From positions 5,980-48,970 of the forward strand of contig JAFLCY010000018.1 in assembly GCA_017303485.1 (NCBI GenBank): DNA of 42,991 nt, written 5' to 3'. The translations under genes were made by a program, and so were the position numbers. Shown in pieces: positions 2,766 through 31,188 of this stretch. The notes under the pieces are model-generated. The model was not told the origin of the DNA, did not search any database, and saw only the letters and a program-made list of their open reading frames with translations. Source of the stretch: Rhodobacterales bacterium (lineage in GTDB: Bacteria; Pseudomonadota; Alphaproteobacteria; Rhodobacterales; Rhodobacteraceae). Each line of letters opens with the position of its first letter. Position 1 is the first letter of the stretch.

Positions 2766-4852
2766 TCGGCTGCGATCTTGATCACCGGCTCCATCGTCGC
2801 CAGCACCTCGCGGGAGAGGTGGCATTTGACCTGATGCCCCCCCTCCAGCACCTGCACCGGCGGCACCTCGCGGTCGCAAAGCCCGCCCGGAACCTGGGAT
2901 TTCCAGCGGCAGCGGGTCTGGAACGGGCAGCCTGGCGGCGGGTTCACCGCCGAGGGGATGTCGCCCTCCAGCACGATGCGCTTGCGTTCGACCCGCGTGT
3001 CGGCAATCGGCACGGCGGAGAGGAGCGCCTCGGTATAGGGGTGGTAGGGGGGCGCGAAAACCTGATCCGTCGTCCCCATCTCGACCACATGGCCGAGATA
3101 CATCACCATCACCCGGTCCGAGAGATAACGCACGATGGAAAGGTCGTGGCTGATGAAGAGAAGCGTCGTCTTGTTCTCGCGCTGGATATCCATCAACAGA
3201 TCGGTGACGGCCGCCTGAACACTGACGTCAAGTGCCGAGACGGGCTCGTCCGCCACCACGACCTTGGCACCGCCTGCGAAAGCACGCGCGATCCCCACCC
3301 GCTGCTTCTGGCCGCCCGAAAGCTGGCGTGGCATCCGGTCGGCGAAGGCGCGGGGCAGTTTCACCAGGTCAAGAAGCTCCAGCATGCGCTGGCGACGATC
3401 CTCATCCGACTTGCCGAACTGGAAGATTTCCAGCGCCCGGATGATCTGGCGGCCAACCGACATCGACGGGTTCAGCGTGTCGAAGGGGTTCTGGAACACC
3501 ATCTGCACCTGGCTGACGGTGTCGGTGTTGCGCTTCTGGATCGGGGTCGACTGGACGTTCTCGTCAAACAGCATGATCGAGCCGGAGGTCGCTGTCTCCA
3601 GACCCATCAGAACCTTGGCGAAGGTCGACTTGCCGCAGCCGGATTCGCCGACGATGGCCAGGGTTTCGCCTTCGCGGGCCTCGAAGCTGAGCGTTTCATT
3701 GGCCTTCACCACCTTCGAGGCCCCGCCACCAAAGGCGCCGGTCGAAACGGAGTAGTATTTGCGCAGGTCCTCCATCTTCAGGACGACCTCGCCGATCGCG
3801 GCCTTTTCCTTCACCTCGCGCGCGGCGGGGGGCGCCGACCAGTCGATTTCCTGCCAGCGCAGACAGCGGCTGTCGTGGCGGTCATCGCCGGGGACATGCG
3901 ACATAGGAATGGCGGCCTCGTCGCAGCGGCCGTGCTGGAAATAGTCGCAACGCGGGCCGAAGTTGCAGCCATGCGGGCGTTCGTGGGGCAGGGGAAAGTT
4001 GCCCGGAATCGAAATCAGGGGCCGGGCGTTCTTGTCGGCACCGGGCAGCGGGATCGAGCGGAAGAGCGCCTGGGTATAGGGGTGGCGCATCTTGTCGAAG
4101 ACTTCGGTCACGTCCCCGGTCTCGACCGCCTCGCCGGAATACATCACGCAGATCCGGTCGCAGACATCCATGACGAGGCCAAGGTTGTGGCTGATGAACA
4201 GCATCGAGGTGCCGTATTTTTCACCCAGTTCCTTGACCAGATCGACGATCCCGGCCTCGACCGTCACGTCCAGCGCGGTGGTGGGCTCGTCGAGGATGAG
4301 GAGCGCGGGTTTGGCCATCAGCGCCATCGCGATGACAATGCGCTGCTGCTGGCCGCCCGAAAGCTGGTGGGGATAGGAGTTGATGATCCGGTCGGGGTCG
4401 GGCAGGCGCACGTCGGCGACGATCTGGCGGGCCAGCGCCCAGGCGTCGGCCTTGGACATGCCGGAATGCAGCATGGGAACCTCGGCCAACTGCGCGCCGA
4501 CCTTCATCGCGGGGTTCAGTGAGGCCATCGGCTCCTGATAGATCATCGCGATCTCGGAGCCGCGGATGTGGCGCAACTCGTCGTCATCCATCTGCGCGAG
4601 GTCGCGGCCCTTGAACTTCATCGAACCGGCTACAATGCGGCCGTTCTTGCCCAGTTCGCGCATGACGGCCAGCGCGACGGTGGATTTGCCGCAGCCGGAT
4701 TCGCCGACGAGGCCCATCGCCTCACCCGCCATGACGGTGCAGGAAAAATCCATCACGGCGGGGATTTCGCGCAGGCGGGTGAAGAAGCTGATCGAGAGAT
4801 GCTCGATTTCGAGGATCGGCTGCGATGGGTCCCAGGTGTCAGAAGCGGTCAT
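2762..4852 (-). CDS. Dipeptide/oligopeptide/nickel ABC transporter, double ATP-binding protein (DppD-DppF fusion type)
   Basis: A 696-residue protein with two complete ABC ATPase domains. Walker A GESGCGKST occurs at about residues 50-58 and again near 400. Signatures are LSGGQQQR and LSGGQKQR, with Walker B LLILDEPTT and VVVADEPVS. Each half ends with the oligopeptide-transporter C-terminal region with its cysteine cluster (GCNFGPRCDYFQHGRCDE; PPGCPFQTRCRWKS), known in this family to bind an Fe-S cluster. It energises uptake through the two permeases just upstream; the ATG lies 4 bases after the upstream permease stop. Fused ATPases of this kind are common in alphaproteobacterial peptide importers. 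The substrate cannot be read from the sequence. Confidence 0.95.
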   Translation of the reverse strand: MTASDTWDPSQPILEIEHLSISFFTRLREIPAVMDFSCTVMAGEAMGLVGESGCGKSTVALAVMRELGKNGRIVAGSMKFKGRDLAQMDDDELRHIRGSEIAMIYQEPMASLNPAMKVGAQLAEVPMLHSGMSKADAWALARQIVADVRLPDPDRIINSYPHQLSGGQQQRIVIAMALMAKPALLILDEPTTALDVTVEAGIVDLVKELGEKYGTSMLFISHNLGLVMDVCDRICVMYSGEAVETGDVTEVFDKMRHPYTQALFRSIPLPGADKNARPLISIPGNFPLPHERPHGCNFGPRCDYFQHGRCDEAAIPMSHVPGDDRHDSRCLRWQEIDWSAPPAAREVKEKAAIGEVVLKMEDLRKYYSVSTGAFGGGASKVVKANETLSFEAREGETLAIVGESGCGKSTFAKVLMGLETATSGSIMLFDENVQSTPIQKRNTDTVSQVQMVFQNPFDTLNPSMSVGRQIIRALEIFQFGKSDEDRRQRMLELLDLVKLPRAFADRMPRQLSGGQKQRVGIARAFAGGAKVVVADEPVSALDVSVQAAVTDLLMDIQRENKTTLLFISHDLSIVRYLSDRVMVMYLGHVVEMGTTDQVFAPPYHPYTEALLSAVPIADTRVERKRIVLEGDIPSAVNPPPGCPFQTRCRWKSQVPGGLCDREVPPVQVLEGGHQVKCHLSREVLATMEPVIKIAAE

Positions 4853-17010: not shown

Positions 17011-19347
17011 ATGCGGATGACCCAAAGCGCGGCCAGAGGGCGGTCGTTCAGGGCCAGTTCTAGGGCGCGTCTCTACGCCACTGCGGTTTTCCTTGGGGCC
17101 GCAACGGTTTCGGCCCCCTACCTCACGCCGGCCTTTGCGCAGTCCTTTTCGTTTTCGAACGTCGATATCCAGGGCAATGAGCGGGTCGATGCCGCGACGA
17201 TCCTGAGCTACGCCGGAATCAGCCGGGGCGCCGACGTGTCGGCCGCGGCCCTGAACGATGCCTATCAGCGCATCATGAACTCGAACCTGTTCGAGTCGGT
17301 CGAACTGGTGCCGCAGGGGTCGACCCTGGTGATCAAGGTGGTGGAATACCCGATCGTCAACGTCATCAGCATCGAGGGCAACAAGCGTCTGAAGGACGAG
17401 AAGCTGTCCGAACTGATCAAGTCGCAGCCGCGCCGGATCTATTCGCCCTCGCAGGCCGAGGCCGATGCGGCGGCGATTGCCGAAGCCTATCGCGGCGCCG
17501 GGCGGCTGGCGGCGACGGTGACGCCGAAGATCATCCGGCGCAACGACAACCGGGTGGACCTGGTTTTCGAGATCACCGAGGGCAAGGTCGTCGAGAACGA
17601 GCGGATTTCCTTCGTCGGCAACAAGGCCTTCTCGGACCGCCGGCTGCGGCAGATTCTGGAGACCAAGCAGGCCGGCCTCCTGCGCAACCTGATCCAGCGC
17701 GACACCTATGTGCCCGAGCGGCTGGAACTGGACAAGAAGGTCCTGACCGACTTCTACCTGTCGCGCGGCTTCATCGATTTCCAGGTGCTGGATGCCAGCG
17801 CCGAGGTCAGCCGCGAACGCGATGCGACCTTCGTCACCTTCACGGTGCGCGAGGGGCTGTCCTACAACATCGGCAAGGTCTCGACCGTGTCCGAGATCGA
17901 AGGGCTGGATGCGGCCGAGTTCGAGGCGGTGCAGAAGATCCGCCCGGGACAGACCTACAGCCCGCTCTTGATCGACAACAACATCACCCGGATGGAAACG
18001 CTGGCCCTGAAGAAGGGACTGAACTTCGTCCGGATCGAGCCGCGCATCACCCGCAACGAGCGCGGCCAGGTGGTCGACGTGGAATTCGCGATCATGCGCG
18101 GCGAGAAGGTCTTCGTCGAACGGATCGACATCGAAGGCAACACGACGACGCTGGACCAGGTGATCCGGCGGCAGTTCCGCACCGTGGAAGGCGATCCCTT
18201 CAACCCGCGTGAAATCCGCCAGGCGGCGGAGCGCATCCGTGCGCTCGGCTTCTTCGCCGATGCGCAGGTCAACGCCGACCAGGGCGGCGGGCCGGATCAG
18301 GTGGTTGTGAACGTCGACGTCGAGGAGCAGCCGACCGGCTCGCTCAGCTTCGGCATGAGCTACTCGGTTTCCAGCGGGGTCGGTTTCACCATCGCCTTTT
18401 CCGAGTCGAACTTCCTGGGCCGCGGGCAGGGCCTGTCGCTCAACGTGTCGACGGCCTCGGCAAACCAGAGTTCGAGCTTCAGCTTCAAGGAGCCCGCGCT
18501 TCTGGGGCGTGACCTGAGCTTCAGCGTCGGCGGATACTATCGGACGTCCGATTCGGATTTCTCGAAATACGACACCCGCAACATCGGGCTGTCGACCGGG
18601 ATCGGCTTTCCGGTGGGCGAGCAGTCGTCGCTCGACCTGCGCCTGAGCCTGGCCGAAGACCGGCTCTACAACTACACCGGCGACTCGGCGATCATTATCG
18701 CGGAAGAAGCGCAGGATGCGCTGACCACCTTCTCGCTGGGCTATACCTACGAATACGACAACCGCATCACCGGCCTGAACCCGAAGGGCGGCGTCCTTCT
18801 GCGCTTTGGCCAGGATTTTGCCGGTCTGGGCGGCGATACCGAGTATGTCAAGACCACGGCGCTGGCCATGGCCGAGACCAAGGTCATGAACGAGGAGGTT
18901 ACCCTTCGGGCGATCTTTGAGGGCGGAGCGATCACCTCGCTTGGCGGCAACGTGACCCGCGTCACCGACCGCTTCTTCGGCAATGGCAAGATCCGCGGCT
19001 TCGAGCCGAACGGCATCGGGCCGCGCGACCTGACGGCGACCGACGACGATGCGCTTGGCGGCAACATGTTCGCCGTGGCGCGGTTCGAGGCGGACTTCCC
19101 GCTCGGCCTGCCCGAGGAATATGGCATTACCGGCGGGGCCTTCCTGGACGTCGGCTCGGTCTGGAGCCTGGACAACACGGGTGGCGGCGCGGTGGATGAC
19201 AGCTTCATTCCCCGAGCGACCGTTGGCGTGTCGATCTTCTGGACCACGCCGATCGGTCCCTTGCGGTTCAACTTCAGCCATGCGGTGAAGAAGGAAGACT
19301 ACGACAAGGAACAGACCTTCGACCTGACGATCTCGACGAAGTTCTGA
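17011..19347 (+). CDS. bamA: Outer membrane protein assembly factor BamA
   Basis: A 778-residue Omp85 protein. A long signal peptide ends ...VSAPYLTPAFAQS near residue 46. Five POTRA domains follow to about residue 360 (first one FSFSNVDIQGNERVDAATIL, later GEKVFVERIDIEGNTTTLDQ). The rest is the 16-stranded barrel, ending with aromatic-rich strand FDLTISTKF. The barrel-lid motif appears as KIRGFEPNGIG, the form of VRGF/Y in this family. It inserts barrel proteins into the outer membrane as the core of the BAM complex. GAGGA precedes the ATG. It has its own promoter, and the ompH-like gene begins two bases after its stop. Confidence 0.97.
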   Translation: MRMTQSAARGRSFRASSRARLYATAVFLGAATVSAPYLTPAFAQSFSFSNVDIQGNERVDAATILSYAGISRGADVSAAALNDAYQRIMNSNLFESVELVPQGSTLVIKVVEYPIVNVISIEGNKRLKDEKLSELIKSQPRRIYSPSQAEADAAAIAEAYRGAGRLAATVTPKIIRRNDNRVDLVFEITEGKVVENERISFVGNKAFSDRRLRQILETKQAGLLRNLIQRDTYVPERLELDKKVLTDFYLSRGFIDFQVLDASAEVSRERDATFVTFTVREGLSYNIGKVSTVSEIEGLDAAEFEAVQKIRPGQTYSPLLIDNNITRMETLALKKGLNFVRIEPRITRNERGQVVDVEFAIMRGEKVFVERIDIEGNTTTLDQVIRRQFRTVEGDPFNPREIRQAAERIRALGFFADAQVNADQGGGPDQVVVNVDVEEQPTGSLSFGMSYSVSSGVGFTIAFSESNFLGRGQGLSLNVSTASANQSSSFSFKEPALLGRDLSFSVGGYYRTSDSDFSKYDTRNIGLSTGIGFPVGEQSSLDLRLSLAEDRLYNYTGDSAIIIAEEAQDALTTFSLGYTYEYDNRITGLNPKGGVLLRFGQDFAGLGGDTEYVKTTALAMAETKVMNEEVTLRAIFEGGAITSLGGNVTRVTDRFFGNGKIRGFEPNGIGPRDLTATDDDALGGNMFAVARFEADFPLGLPEEYGITGGAFLDVGSVWSLDNTGGGAVDDSFIPRATVGVSIFWTTPIGPLRFNFSHAVKKEDYDKEQTFDLTISTKF

Positions 19348-26116: not shown

Positions 26117-30384
<4,268 letters not shown>

Positions 30385-30419
30385 GGCCCGACTCGGGAAT
30401 TTCCGGTTTGTTCGCGAAT

Positions 30420-30434
30420 GTTCTTAAAAAGTTC
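30420..30434 (+). promoter_or_regulatory. LexA-type SOS box (GTTC-N7-GTTC)
   Basis: GTTC-ttaaaaa-GTTC at 30420-30434 exactly fits the direct-repeat SOS box known for LexA in alphaproteobacteria such as Rhodobacter. A third GTTC lies just upstream (30410-30413), at six-base spacing. The box ends one base before a candidate -35 (30435-30440), so bound LexA would block the promoter. It lies 36 bases after recG and 56 bases before the 40-codon gene. Confidence 0.7.
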
Positions 30435-30464
30435 TTTACAGGCCATCGCCGATATGAGAACAAT
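30435..30464 (+). promoter_or_regulatory. Candidate promoter of the 40-codon gene
   Basis: TTTACA (30435-30440), 18-base spacer, AACAAT (30459-30464), 26 bases before the ATG. Five of six and four of six matches. Position next to the LexA-type box is what makes it interesting. Confidence 0.35.
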
Positions 30465-30489
30465 GCAGCAACAACTCATGGAGGACACG

Positions 30490-30612
30490 ATGAAAGACGC
30501 CATGAAGACCTTGCTGAGCCACACGCCGAAGGGGGCCGTGGAAGACCTGGTTGGGGTCGCGTCGCTGTTCGCCCTGCTGTTTGCCGTGCTGTCCTTCCCC
30601 GGCCTGTCCTGA
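30490..30612 (+). CDS. Small single-pass membrane protein (40 aa), putatively SOS-controlled
   Basis: A 40-residue protein, MKDAMKTLLSHTPKGAVEDL plus a hydrophobic second half (VGVASLFALLFAVLSFPG) ending at LS. A short amphipathic, basic N-terminus of about 18 residues is followed by one predicted membrane helix. GGAGG at 30480-30484 is five bases before the ATG, which decides the start over upstream in-frame ATGs at 30418, 30454 and 30478. A LexA-type box and a promoter lie before it and a strong intrinsic terminator after it, so it is a complete single-gene unit. I do not recognise a named family. The arrangement recalls SOS-induced small inner-membrane division inhibitors such as Caulobacter SidA; that function is inference. 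Confidence 0.8.
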   Translation: MKDAMKTLLSHTPKGAVEDLVGVASLFALLFAVLSFPGLS

Positions 30613-30696
30613 AAGTTTCTGCCCCGCGCTCTGTCCCCCGAGGGTGACGGTCCGCCTCGCCTGGCCTACCGTCCGCCATTTCCAGACGCGCTACTG

Positions 30697-30731
30697 CCGC
30701 CGCCATCCCCCCGGATGCGCGGCGGTTTTTT
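30697..30731 (+). terminator. Rho-independent terminator
   Basis: CCGCCGCCATCC (30697-30708), 4-base loop, GGATGCGCGGCGG (30713-30725) with one bulged base, then six T (30726-30731). It ends the small SOS-type unit and faces the convergent IscU-like gene, whose stop is at 30745. Confidence 0.85.
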
Positions 30732-30744
30732 CATGCGGTGAGGG

Positions 30745-31188
30745 CTAGGCGGCGGCTTGCGCGGCTTCCATCGCCTCGCAGACGGCTTCCAGCGCGAGGA
30801 GGATCGAGGCATGGCGGTTCTTGTAGTCACGGGCGGGAAGCAGGACCTCATAACCCTGGAACGGAGCGGCAGGAACCCCGCCACCCTCTTTCAGCATGGC
30901 GCGAAGGGCGTCGCGCGCGGCCTGCAGCTCCGGCAGGCTGCGACCCAGGACGACCTGACCCAGCACGGCGGCAGAGGCCTGTCCAAGGGCGCAGGCCTTC
31001 ACGTCCTGGGCGAATTCGGCGACGCGACCGTCCCGGACCACCACATCCGCCGTCACCGTGGATCCGCAGAGGGGCGAGCGGCGGCGGGCGCTGCCGTCCG
31101 GCGCGGGCAGCCGGCCAAGATGCGGGATATCGGCGGCAAGCCCGAGGATGCGGGCAGAGTAGAGTTTGATGAGGTCGCTGTCGCTCAT
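30745..31188 (-). CDS. IscU/NifU-like Fe-S scaffold family protein, lacking the third ligand
   Basis: A 147-residue protein of the NifU N-terminal/IscU family. Cys41 in PLCGSTV and Cys66 in KACALGQASAAVL match the first two cluster cysteines of IscU. The aspartate that normally follows the first Cys (CGD) is Ser43, and the third cysteine motif HCSIL is HASIL here (Ala127), so two classic cluster-site residues are missing. A free Cys137 lies ten residues further on. Thus it may bind a cluster differently or act in another step. ATG 31188 with GAGGGG upstream starts the family alignment; the longer frame overlaps hisI. It diverges from hisI across 61 bases. Confidence 0.85.
   Translation of the reverse strand: MSDSDLIKLYSARILGLAADIPHLGRLPAPDGSARRRSPLCGSTVTADVVVRDGRVAEFAQDVKACALGQASAAVLGQVVLGRSLPELQAARDALRAMLKEGGGVPAAPFQGYEVLLPARDYKNRHASILLALEAVCEAMEAAQAAA

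What the first reader, a model, noticed from the sequence alone, without database searches (positions are those of the whole stretch)
30410..30731. LexA-box-controlled 40-residue membrane peptide after recG: candidate SOS-induced small protein
Seen: GTTC-N7-GTTC (30420-30434), with a further GTTC upstream, then a candidate -35 immediately after the box, GGAGG, a 40-codon gene with one hydrophobic helix, and a strong T-run terminator. Known: alphaproteobacterial LexA (for example Rhodobacter) binds GTTC-N7-GTTC direct repeats; Caulobacter SOS includes SidA, a very small inner-membrane division inhibitor. Inferred: this unit makes a damage-induced membrane peptide, possibly a division or membrane-function checkpoint in Rhodobacteraceae. 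Its size is below usual annotation cut-offs.
Basis: partly seen in the sequence, partly recalled or inferred. Interest (0 to 1): 0.75.

Follow-up and report, generated by a model that had tools for sequence, protein, structure and literature searches.

The report
DNA-damage membrane peptide with RNA tail
Behind the recG repair gene of this bacterium and of most sampled relatives in its family sits a tiny gene with an operator of the DNA-damage (SOS) type, encoding a 40-residue membrane peptide followed, in many relatives, by a conserved folded RNA; it looks like an undescribed part of the family's damage response, with function still to be shown.

Summary
Box, promoter, 40-codon ORF and terminator are present. 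One box in one window is weak evidence (3 seen, 0.93 expected), but conservation is decisive. A profile of the peptide hits 351 of 394 family genomes; in a class sample of 385 it hits 6, five of them of this family, the sixth doubtful. Of 134 non-redundant loci, 132 have the strict box upstream (0 of 133 control stretches) and 116 encode exactly 40 residues. lexA and recA of the same genomes carry the same box (27 of 28, 26 of 29). New: the 3' UTR of many relatives is a multi-hairpin RNA with repeated, mostly unpaired CUGYCY motifs and strong covariation, without an Rfam match above chance. The window's own copy is a shortened variant that the model does not recognise. SOS control is well supported by sequence; a SidA-like division checkpoint is plausible but untested; the RNA's role is unknown.

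The parts
30410..30413 (+). extra GTTC half-site, 10 bp before the box
   Evidence: the bases of the matching GTTC columns are at 91-96% in the logo of 131 loci
30420..30434 (+). LexA-type operator GTTC-N7-GTTC (GTTCTTAAAAAGTTC)
   Evidence: strict box within 260 bp upstream in 132 of 134 loci, 0 of 133 control stretches
30435..30440 (+). -35 element TTTACA, abutting the operator
30455..30464 (+). conserved TGAGAACAA(T); -10 read as AACAAT after 18 nt (or GAACAA after 17 nt with TG before it)
   Evidence: exact register inferred
30458..30472 (+). second, imperfect operator GAAC-N7-CAAC over the -10 and the predicted start of transcription
   Evidence: both halves conserved at fixed spacing in the logo; LexA binding inferred
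30480..30484 (+). ribosome-binding site GGAGG
   Evidence: purine-rich sites precede most of the 134 starts printed (by eye)
30490..30612 (+). 40-codon gene: N-terminal part with basic residues (about 1-18), then one hydrophobic helix (about 19-39)
30619..30695 (+). structured 3' UTR RNA, shortened variant: outer helix 30626-30633 with 30683-30691, one inner helix, CUGYCY motifs
   Evidence: (z -2.6); family shown by covariation in relatives; not recognised by model R2
30696..30731 (+). intrinsic terminator, G+C-rich stem-loop and T-run
28300..30384 (+). recG, the usual upstream neighbour
   Evidence: recG found in 28 of the first 30 loci (not in L014, L025) and in 117 of 117 promoter hits

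Best explanation
This is a LexA-repressed transcription unit of the DNA-damage (SOS) response, near-universal in the sampled Rhodobacteraceae. Its promoter is covered by LexA-type half-sites before the -35 and over the -10. When damage activates RecA and LexA is cut, a short mRNA is made, about 260 nt here. It is translated into a 40-residue single-pass inner-membrane peptide; in many relatives its 3' UTR folds into a conserved multi-hairpin RNA ending in the terminator. The peptide most likely inserts with the basic N-terminal side inside and docks through one conserved helix face (D19, G22, L26, L30, L34) onto a membrane protein, most plausibly of the late divisome, to hold division while DNA is repaired. 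The RNA is most likely a second output that acts through its C-rich motifs. Shown here: operator, promoter, ORF and RNA conservation. Inferred: one transcript, induction, topology, partner, checkpoint role and any RNA activity.
For: Peptide in 351 of 394 family genomes; exact length 40 in 116 of 134 loci; strict box in 132 of 134 against 0 of 133 controls; the promoter pattern alone leads to recG in 117 of 117 and to the peptide in 116 of 117; the same box at lexA 27 of 28 and recA 26 of 29. Coding: codon positions differ by 0.444, 0.286 and 0.605, pN is below pS in 98.7% of pairs, and with the same-genus copy pS is 0.45 and pN 0.12. One hydrophobic helix (best 17-residue mean 2.36 on average), net charge about +0.9 in the first 18 residues, mean 0.00 K or R in the last 8. 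RNA: mean z -2.50 against -0.14 in controls; 27 of 28 and 28 of 28 pairs with changes on both sides.
Against: No expression, binding or phenotype data. pN/pS is 0.79 among the 615 pairs with pS below 0.5, a set chosen for low pS. No convincing match to any known protein family, so the divisome target rests on analogy. The window's own RNA is too reduced for the family model and its full transcript folds no better than shuffles (z 0.47). No sign that 5' and 3' UTRs pair. The first RNA model found only 52 of 99 promoter loci and 38 of 149 genomes. Five of 24 recG loci from weak or negative genomes lack the box and, by script, the ORF.
Confidence: 0.5

Rival explanations
1. The peptide is a membrane-depolarising, growth-slowing peptide of the TisB kind rather than a divisome inhibitor; the structured RNA tunes its translation or stability.
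For: SOS-type promoter, short size and one helix fit; repeated half-sites suggest a need for tight repression (inference).
Against: No sigma-70-like promoter on the opposite strand in 30300-30800 that could make an antisense RNA (consensus scan only); conserved D19 at the helix start and a conserved face suggest a specific partner; presence in most of the family, usually one match per genome, is unlike most type I toxins (recalled); no 5'-3' pairing signal.
Confidence: 0.2
2. The main product is the RNA: a 3' UTR small RNA with C-rich motifs under SOS control, the peptide being minor or a way to stabilise the message.
For: Covariation and motif conservation; CUGYCY 3.27 per RNA against 0.55 in shuffles, 75% of motif bases unpaired against 43% of all bases.
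Against: The peptide is found in more genomes than the RNA model, its length is nearly fixed, and the window's own RNA is reduced.
Confidence: 0.2
3. The peptide modulates another membrane complex (respiratory, transport or protease) under damage, unrelated to division.
For: Small single-helix proteins often regulate such complexes (recalled); the basic N-terminal part and helix face fit any membrane partner.
Against: SOS-induced division inhibitors of Caulobacter, Bacillus and Staphylococcus point to division (PMC4211646, passages; PMC13396833 and PMC6851548, search listing).
Confidence: 0.25
4. The locus is the known UdsC/RSP_7527 small-RNA locus of Rhodobacter sphaeroides seen in another genome.
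For: RSP_7527 is also a 300-nt message for a small hypothetical protein with an sRNA of about 70 nt cut from its 3' UTR (PMC6238624, PMC8625941, PMC9779115, passages).
Against: Its promoter is reported as RpoHII-dependent, UdsC is 67 nt and highly abundant in exponential phase, and the words recG and LexA do not occur in the UdsC paper's main text. Its genome position was not compared with recG.
Confidence: 0.07

Closest known systems
SidA of Caulobacter crescentus
   Same: LexA-controlled, very small inner-membrane protein of an alphaproteobacterium (29 residues, interacts with FtsW; PMC4211646, passages)
   Different: No sequence relation shown: the profile hits nothing convincing outside the family in a 385-genome class sample, and SidA's own sequence was not compared; here mostly 40 residues, usually behind recG, with a structured 3' UTR in many relatives
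TisB-type SOS membrane toxins (recalled)
   Same: SOS-type promoter, short hydrophobic peptide
   Different: Present in most of the family, no antisense promoter seen, no family match
UdsC from the RSP_7527 3' UTR, Rhodobacter sphaeroides (PMC9779115, PMC8625941, passages)
   Same: Small RNA from the 3' UTR of a small-protein message, in a member of the same family
   Different: RpoHII promoter, 67 nt, role in hydrogen peroxide resistance and motility; not shown to be the recG locus
Rfam sX13 (RF02232), Xanthomonadaceae sRNA
   Same: Only Rfam row over the 3' UTR, 16.5 bits; C-rich loops (recalled)
   Different: Far below its cut-off of 50 bits; Xanthomonadaceae are gammaproteobacteria (recalled)
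Dual-function RNAs such as VcdRP of Vibrio cholerae (PMC8672173, search listing)
   Same: One RNA with a very small protein (29 residues there) and a regulatory RNA part
   Different: VcdRP acts in carbon metabolism; RNA activity here is unproven

Membership tests
LexA (SOS) regulon of alphaproteobacteria | GTTC-N7-GTTC operator overlapping the promoter, conserved among relatives | tested here: met
   132 of 134 loci; same motif at lexA 27 of 28 and recA 26 of 29; motif stated for Alphaproteobacteria in PMC8565304 (passage)
LexA (SOS) regulon of alphaproteobacteria | LexA binding and RecA-dependent induction | not testable with these tools
   needs gel shift and expression after damage
SidA family | sequence homology to SidA | tested here: inconclusive
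   no convincing match outside the family in 385 class genomes; SidA's sequence itself was not compared
SidA family | very small single-helix membrane peptide under LexA-type control | tested here: met
   (by sequence only)
SidA family | interaction with FtsW or FtsN and division block | not testable with these tools
   needs two-hybrid and microscopy
Type I toxin-antitoxin | antisense RNA antitoxin | tested here: inconclusive
   no sigma-70-like promoter on the minus strand in 30300-30800 (consensus scan)
Dual-function RNA | conserved ORF and conserved RNA structure between one promoter and one terminator | tested here: met
   for relatives; transcript and translation untested, window copy reduced
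Dual-function RNA | regulation by base pairing in trans | not tested
   no target search was made
UdsC / RSP_7527 | RpoHII promoter and 67-nt processed RNA at the RSP_7527 locus | not tested
   promoter here is LexA/sigma-70-like by sequence; locus position not compared
Rfam families (sX13 considered) | score above the gathering cut-off | tested here: not met
   window 30380-30760: 16.5 bits against 50, and adapt33_2 18.9 against 60; in 8 relatives only Ysr141 rows at 21-24 bits against 196, outside this RNA

The most novel reading that the evidence does not exclude
A family-wide SOS dual-output gene: one LexA-controlled RNA makes a membrane peptide that stops the divisome and, from its 3' UTR, a multi-hairpin CUGYCY RNA that silences messages in trans, so that one transcript enforces the damage checkpoint at protein and RNA level.
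Probability: 0.2. Interest if true: 0.88.

Novelty: new variant of a known kind. Interest (0 to 1): 0.72.

Why it matters
A gene this conserved with an SOS-type operator is a strong candidate for a damage-checkpoint protein of the Rhodobacteraceae. I saw no SOS division inhibitor for this family in the titles and abstract starts listed (one search returned nothing), but no search was aimed at that alone. The Dinoroseobacter LexA-site survey does not contain the word recG in its main text (PMC6473078, passages; supplement not read). The linked RNA would be a conserved RNA family without an Rfam entry and would put an RNA output into the SOS response. Both can be tested in laboratory strains with standard methods.

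Tried and rejected
Single-sequence search found only 47 of 198 genomes; the profile was needed. Pfam, NCBIfam and PHROGs scans and the PDB sequence search gave nothing convincing (best single-member E-values 0.025 to 0.089-fold chance level, PDB 0.89). Rfam gave only chance-level rows. A longer ORF from ATG 30418 (64 codons) was rejected because conservation begins at the ATG at 30490 and the longer frame runs over the operator. Pairing of the 5' UTR with the 3' RNA was tested and not supported (own mean -23.13, other loci -23.30). A first MAFFT alignment of 20 RNAs looked misaligned in the 3' strands; a ten-sequence alignment and model-based alignments were used instead. Wider origin: of 30 recG loci from a class sample only one, of the same family, has the box within 300 bp (L377 was not readable and L378 held 261 bp). 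One relative of the peptide (L011) gave no phage match and one plasmid match, on a 1.58 Mb replicon of Pseudorhodobacter turbinis. No target search for the RNA was made.

Limits of the counts: the 134 loci are mostly the best-scoring rows, not a random sample; 11 of 145 were dropped as duplicates. The logo uses 131 of 134 rows. RNA folding used 116 of 134 loci, after 4 without a recognised terminator, 10 that could not be cut out and 4 of unsuitable length were dropped. R1 was given 99 of 117 promoter loci and R2 99 of the 134 loci plus the window. Alignments A4 and A5 are fitted to the model structure. The recG check of weak genomes read 24 loci from 30 genomes; the other 6 gave no full recG.

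Full report
Observation. GTTC occurs at 30410, 30420 and 30431, the last two forming GTTC-N7-GTTC. TTTACA follows directly, and the promoter scan finds TTTACA-18-AACAAT at 30435-30464 as its only promoter-like site in 30300-30800, against a shuffle mean of 0.0. GGAGG at 30480 precedes the ATG at 30490; 40 codons end at 30612; a terminator ends at 30731 (seen in the fold; the scan lists two other terminator-like sites and not this one). The box alone is weak: three in the window against 0.93 expected, the other two inside long ORFs, and 126 in the genome against 85 for the reversed pattern.

Conservation of the peptide. The window sequence alone found 47 of 198 family genomes at E 0.1. A profile of 30 members (A1) found 351 of 394 family genomes at E 0.01, nearly one genome per genus. 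In a class sample it hit 6 of 385: five of the same family, own genome included, and one at E 0.008 inside a 547-codon frame, taken as chance. I read 145 loci and kept 134 after removing duplicates; all 134 were given an ATG start (the script preferred ATG near the expected place), 116 are exactly 40 residues and the rest 36 to 42. Apart from M1, the most constant positions among the 116 are G22 and L34 (116), D19 (115), L30 (112), L26 (111) and P37 (110). D19, G22, L26, L30 and L34 lie on one helix face (inference from spacing). Codon behaviour is that of a gene: differences 0.444, 0.286 and 0.605 at positions 1 to 3, pN below pS in 98.7% of pairs, and 0.12 against 0.45 for the same-genus copy; among the 615 pairs with pS below 0.5 the ratio is 0.79. 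Composition predicts one hydrophobic helix with a basic N-terminal side.

Conservation of the promoter. Within 260 bp upstream the strict box is present in 132 of 134 loci, against 0 of 133 stretches just further upstream. The logo of 131 loci shows GTTC-N6-GTTC-N7-GTTC-TTTACA-N14-TGAGAACAA-N5-CAACA at fixed spacing. The -10 region therefore lies in a second, imperfect repeat GAAC-N7-CAAC. In the 30 genomes first read, lexA was found in 28 and recA in 29, and the box, in either orientation within 450 nt upstream of the match, is present in 27 of 28 and 26 of 29, nearly always written as GAAC-N7-GAAC. The motif is the one reported for Alphaproteobacteria (PMC8565304, passage).

Reverse test. 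Their titles, are Rhodobacteraceae names as far as I recognise them, or unplaced alphaproteobacterial or pseudomonadotal bins. recG lies upstream in 117 of 117, and the peptide follows in 116; the last is cut by the end of its locus. Two Paracoccus copies, L245 and L313, are shorter, keeping the helix. Species overlap with the loci above, so this is a different method rather than a wholly new sample. Of the first 30 loci found by peptide, 28 have recG beside them; L014 and L025 keep promoter and peptide without a recG match in the stretch.

Limits of range. Full recG loci were read in 24 of 30 genomes with weak or no profile hit: 19 of 24 still have a GTTC or GAAC box within 200 bp, and 16 of 24 a short hydrophobic ORF behind it by script; by eye the other three boxed loci (L322, L333, L344) also have one. 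Of 30 recG loci in a class sample, one has a box, and it is of the same family. The unit therefore looks like an innovation of this family, at this sensitivity.

The 3' UTR. Within 200 nt of the stop codon the words CTGCCTG and CTGTCCC occur in 110 and 105 of 134 loci. Single-sequence folds repeatedly show, by eye, an outer helix closing on GCG/CGC that encloses several hairpins (the output was cut). Over 116 loci the mean z without the terminator is -2.50 against -0.14 in same-length controls, and an outer helix of at least 7 bp occurs in 113 of 116 against 44.6% of shuffles and 65 of 116 controls. CUGYCY occurs 3.27 times per RNA against 0.55 in shuffles, with 75% of motif bases unpaired against 43% of all bases. 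A covariance model from ten sequences (R1) hit 52 of 99 promoter loci at E 0.01, all 153-267 nt behind the promoter on its strand. On these, 27 of 28 pairs change on both sides, 90.0% of cells pair, and none of 500 shuffles reaches this; slid partners fall to 37-48%. R1 found 38 of 149 family genomes, one hit each, with the tool's stricter filters and not in the window's genome; the 25 whose peptide position is listed or 19 have it just behind the peptide, and 13 could not be checked. A second model (R2) gave rows at E 1 in 84 of 99 loci, 80 of them starting within -5 to +100 nt of the stop codon; the first 70 rows have E 0.01 or less, 69 in that range and the other 111 nt behind. On all 85 rows, one of them a wrong-strand chance hit, 28 of 28 pairs change on both sides and no shuffle reaches the observed values. 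Both alignments are fitted to the model and share species. Rfam has no match above chance over this RNA.

The window's own RNA. It is short (78 nt without terminator). It folds well by itself (z -2.6, -5.04 with terminator), but R2 does not recognise it, and the whole predicted transcript folds no better than shuffles (z 0.47). It is best called a reduced variant by position, motifs and outer helix.

Mechanism. Sequence supports SOS control of a unit with two conserved parts. The peptide's nearly fixed length, conserved helix face and membrane character fit a regulator that docks on a membrane protein. SidA, a 29-residue LexA-controlled inner-membrane protein that interacts with FtsW in Caulobacter (PMC4211646, passages), is the nearest functional precedent, so a division checkpoint is my first choice, at about even odds for the full statement. 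No homology to SidA was shown. For the RNA, mostly single-stranded C-rich motifs presented by a helical scaffold suggest binding to G-rich sites in other messages or to a protein; pairing with its own 5' UTR was tested and not supported.

Comparison with the literature. None of the passages read describes this locus. The Dinoroseobacter LexA-site survey names lexA, recA, dprA and others in the passages seen, and the word recG does not occur in its main text; its supplement was not read (PMC6473078). Two other papers were checked for recG and were irrelevant (PMC2864571, PMC4414408, passages). The nearest published RNA is UdsC of R. sphaeroides, from the 3' UTR of RSP_7527; its RpoHII promoter, 67-nt size and abundance in exponential phase argue against identity, but the position of RSP_7527 relative to recG was not checked. 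This is the main open doubt on novelty.

Noticed in passing
window 30619-30731; relatives L037, L038, L060, L127 and others: Conserved multi-hairpin RNA with repeated, mostly unpaired CUGYCY motifs in the 3' UTR, without an Rfam match above chance; taken into the finding.
   Followed up: yes
L245, L313 (Paracoccus): The peptide is shortened to about 30 residues, losing most of the N-terminal part while the helix and promoter remain; close to the reported size of SidA.
   Followed up: no
L014, L025: Promoter and peptide are present without a recG match in the fetched stretch, so the unit can move or persist apart from recG.
   Followed up: no
L325, L327, L330, L331, L334: Five recG loci of the family without a box within 200 bp or, by script, a peptide behind recG: apparent losses or moves.
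   Followed up: partly
L068, L081, L088, L091 and others, upstream of recA: Some recA promoters of the family carry a further TGTTCT word upstream of the GAAC-N7-GAAC box.
   Followed up: no
window 4643-4657 and 17046-17060: Two further GTTC-N7-GTTC matches lie inside long ORFs that look like an ABC transporter and a BamA-like protein (by eye); probably chance.
   Followed up: partly
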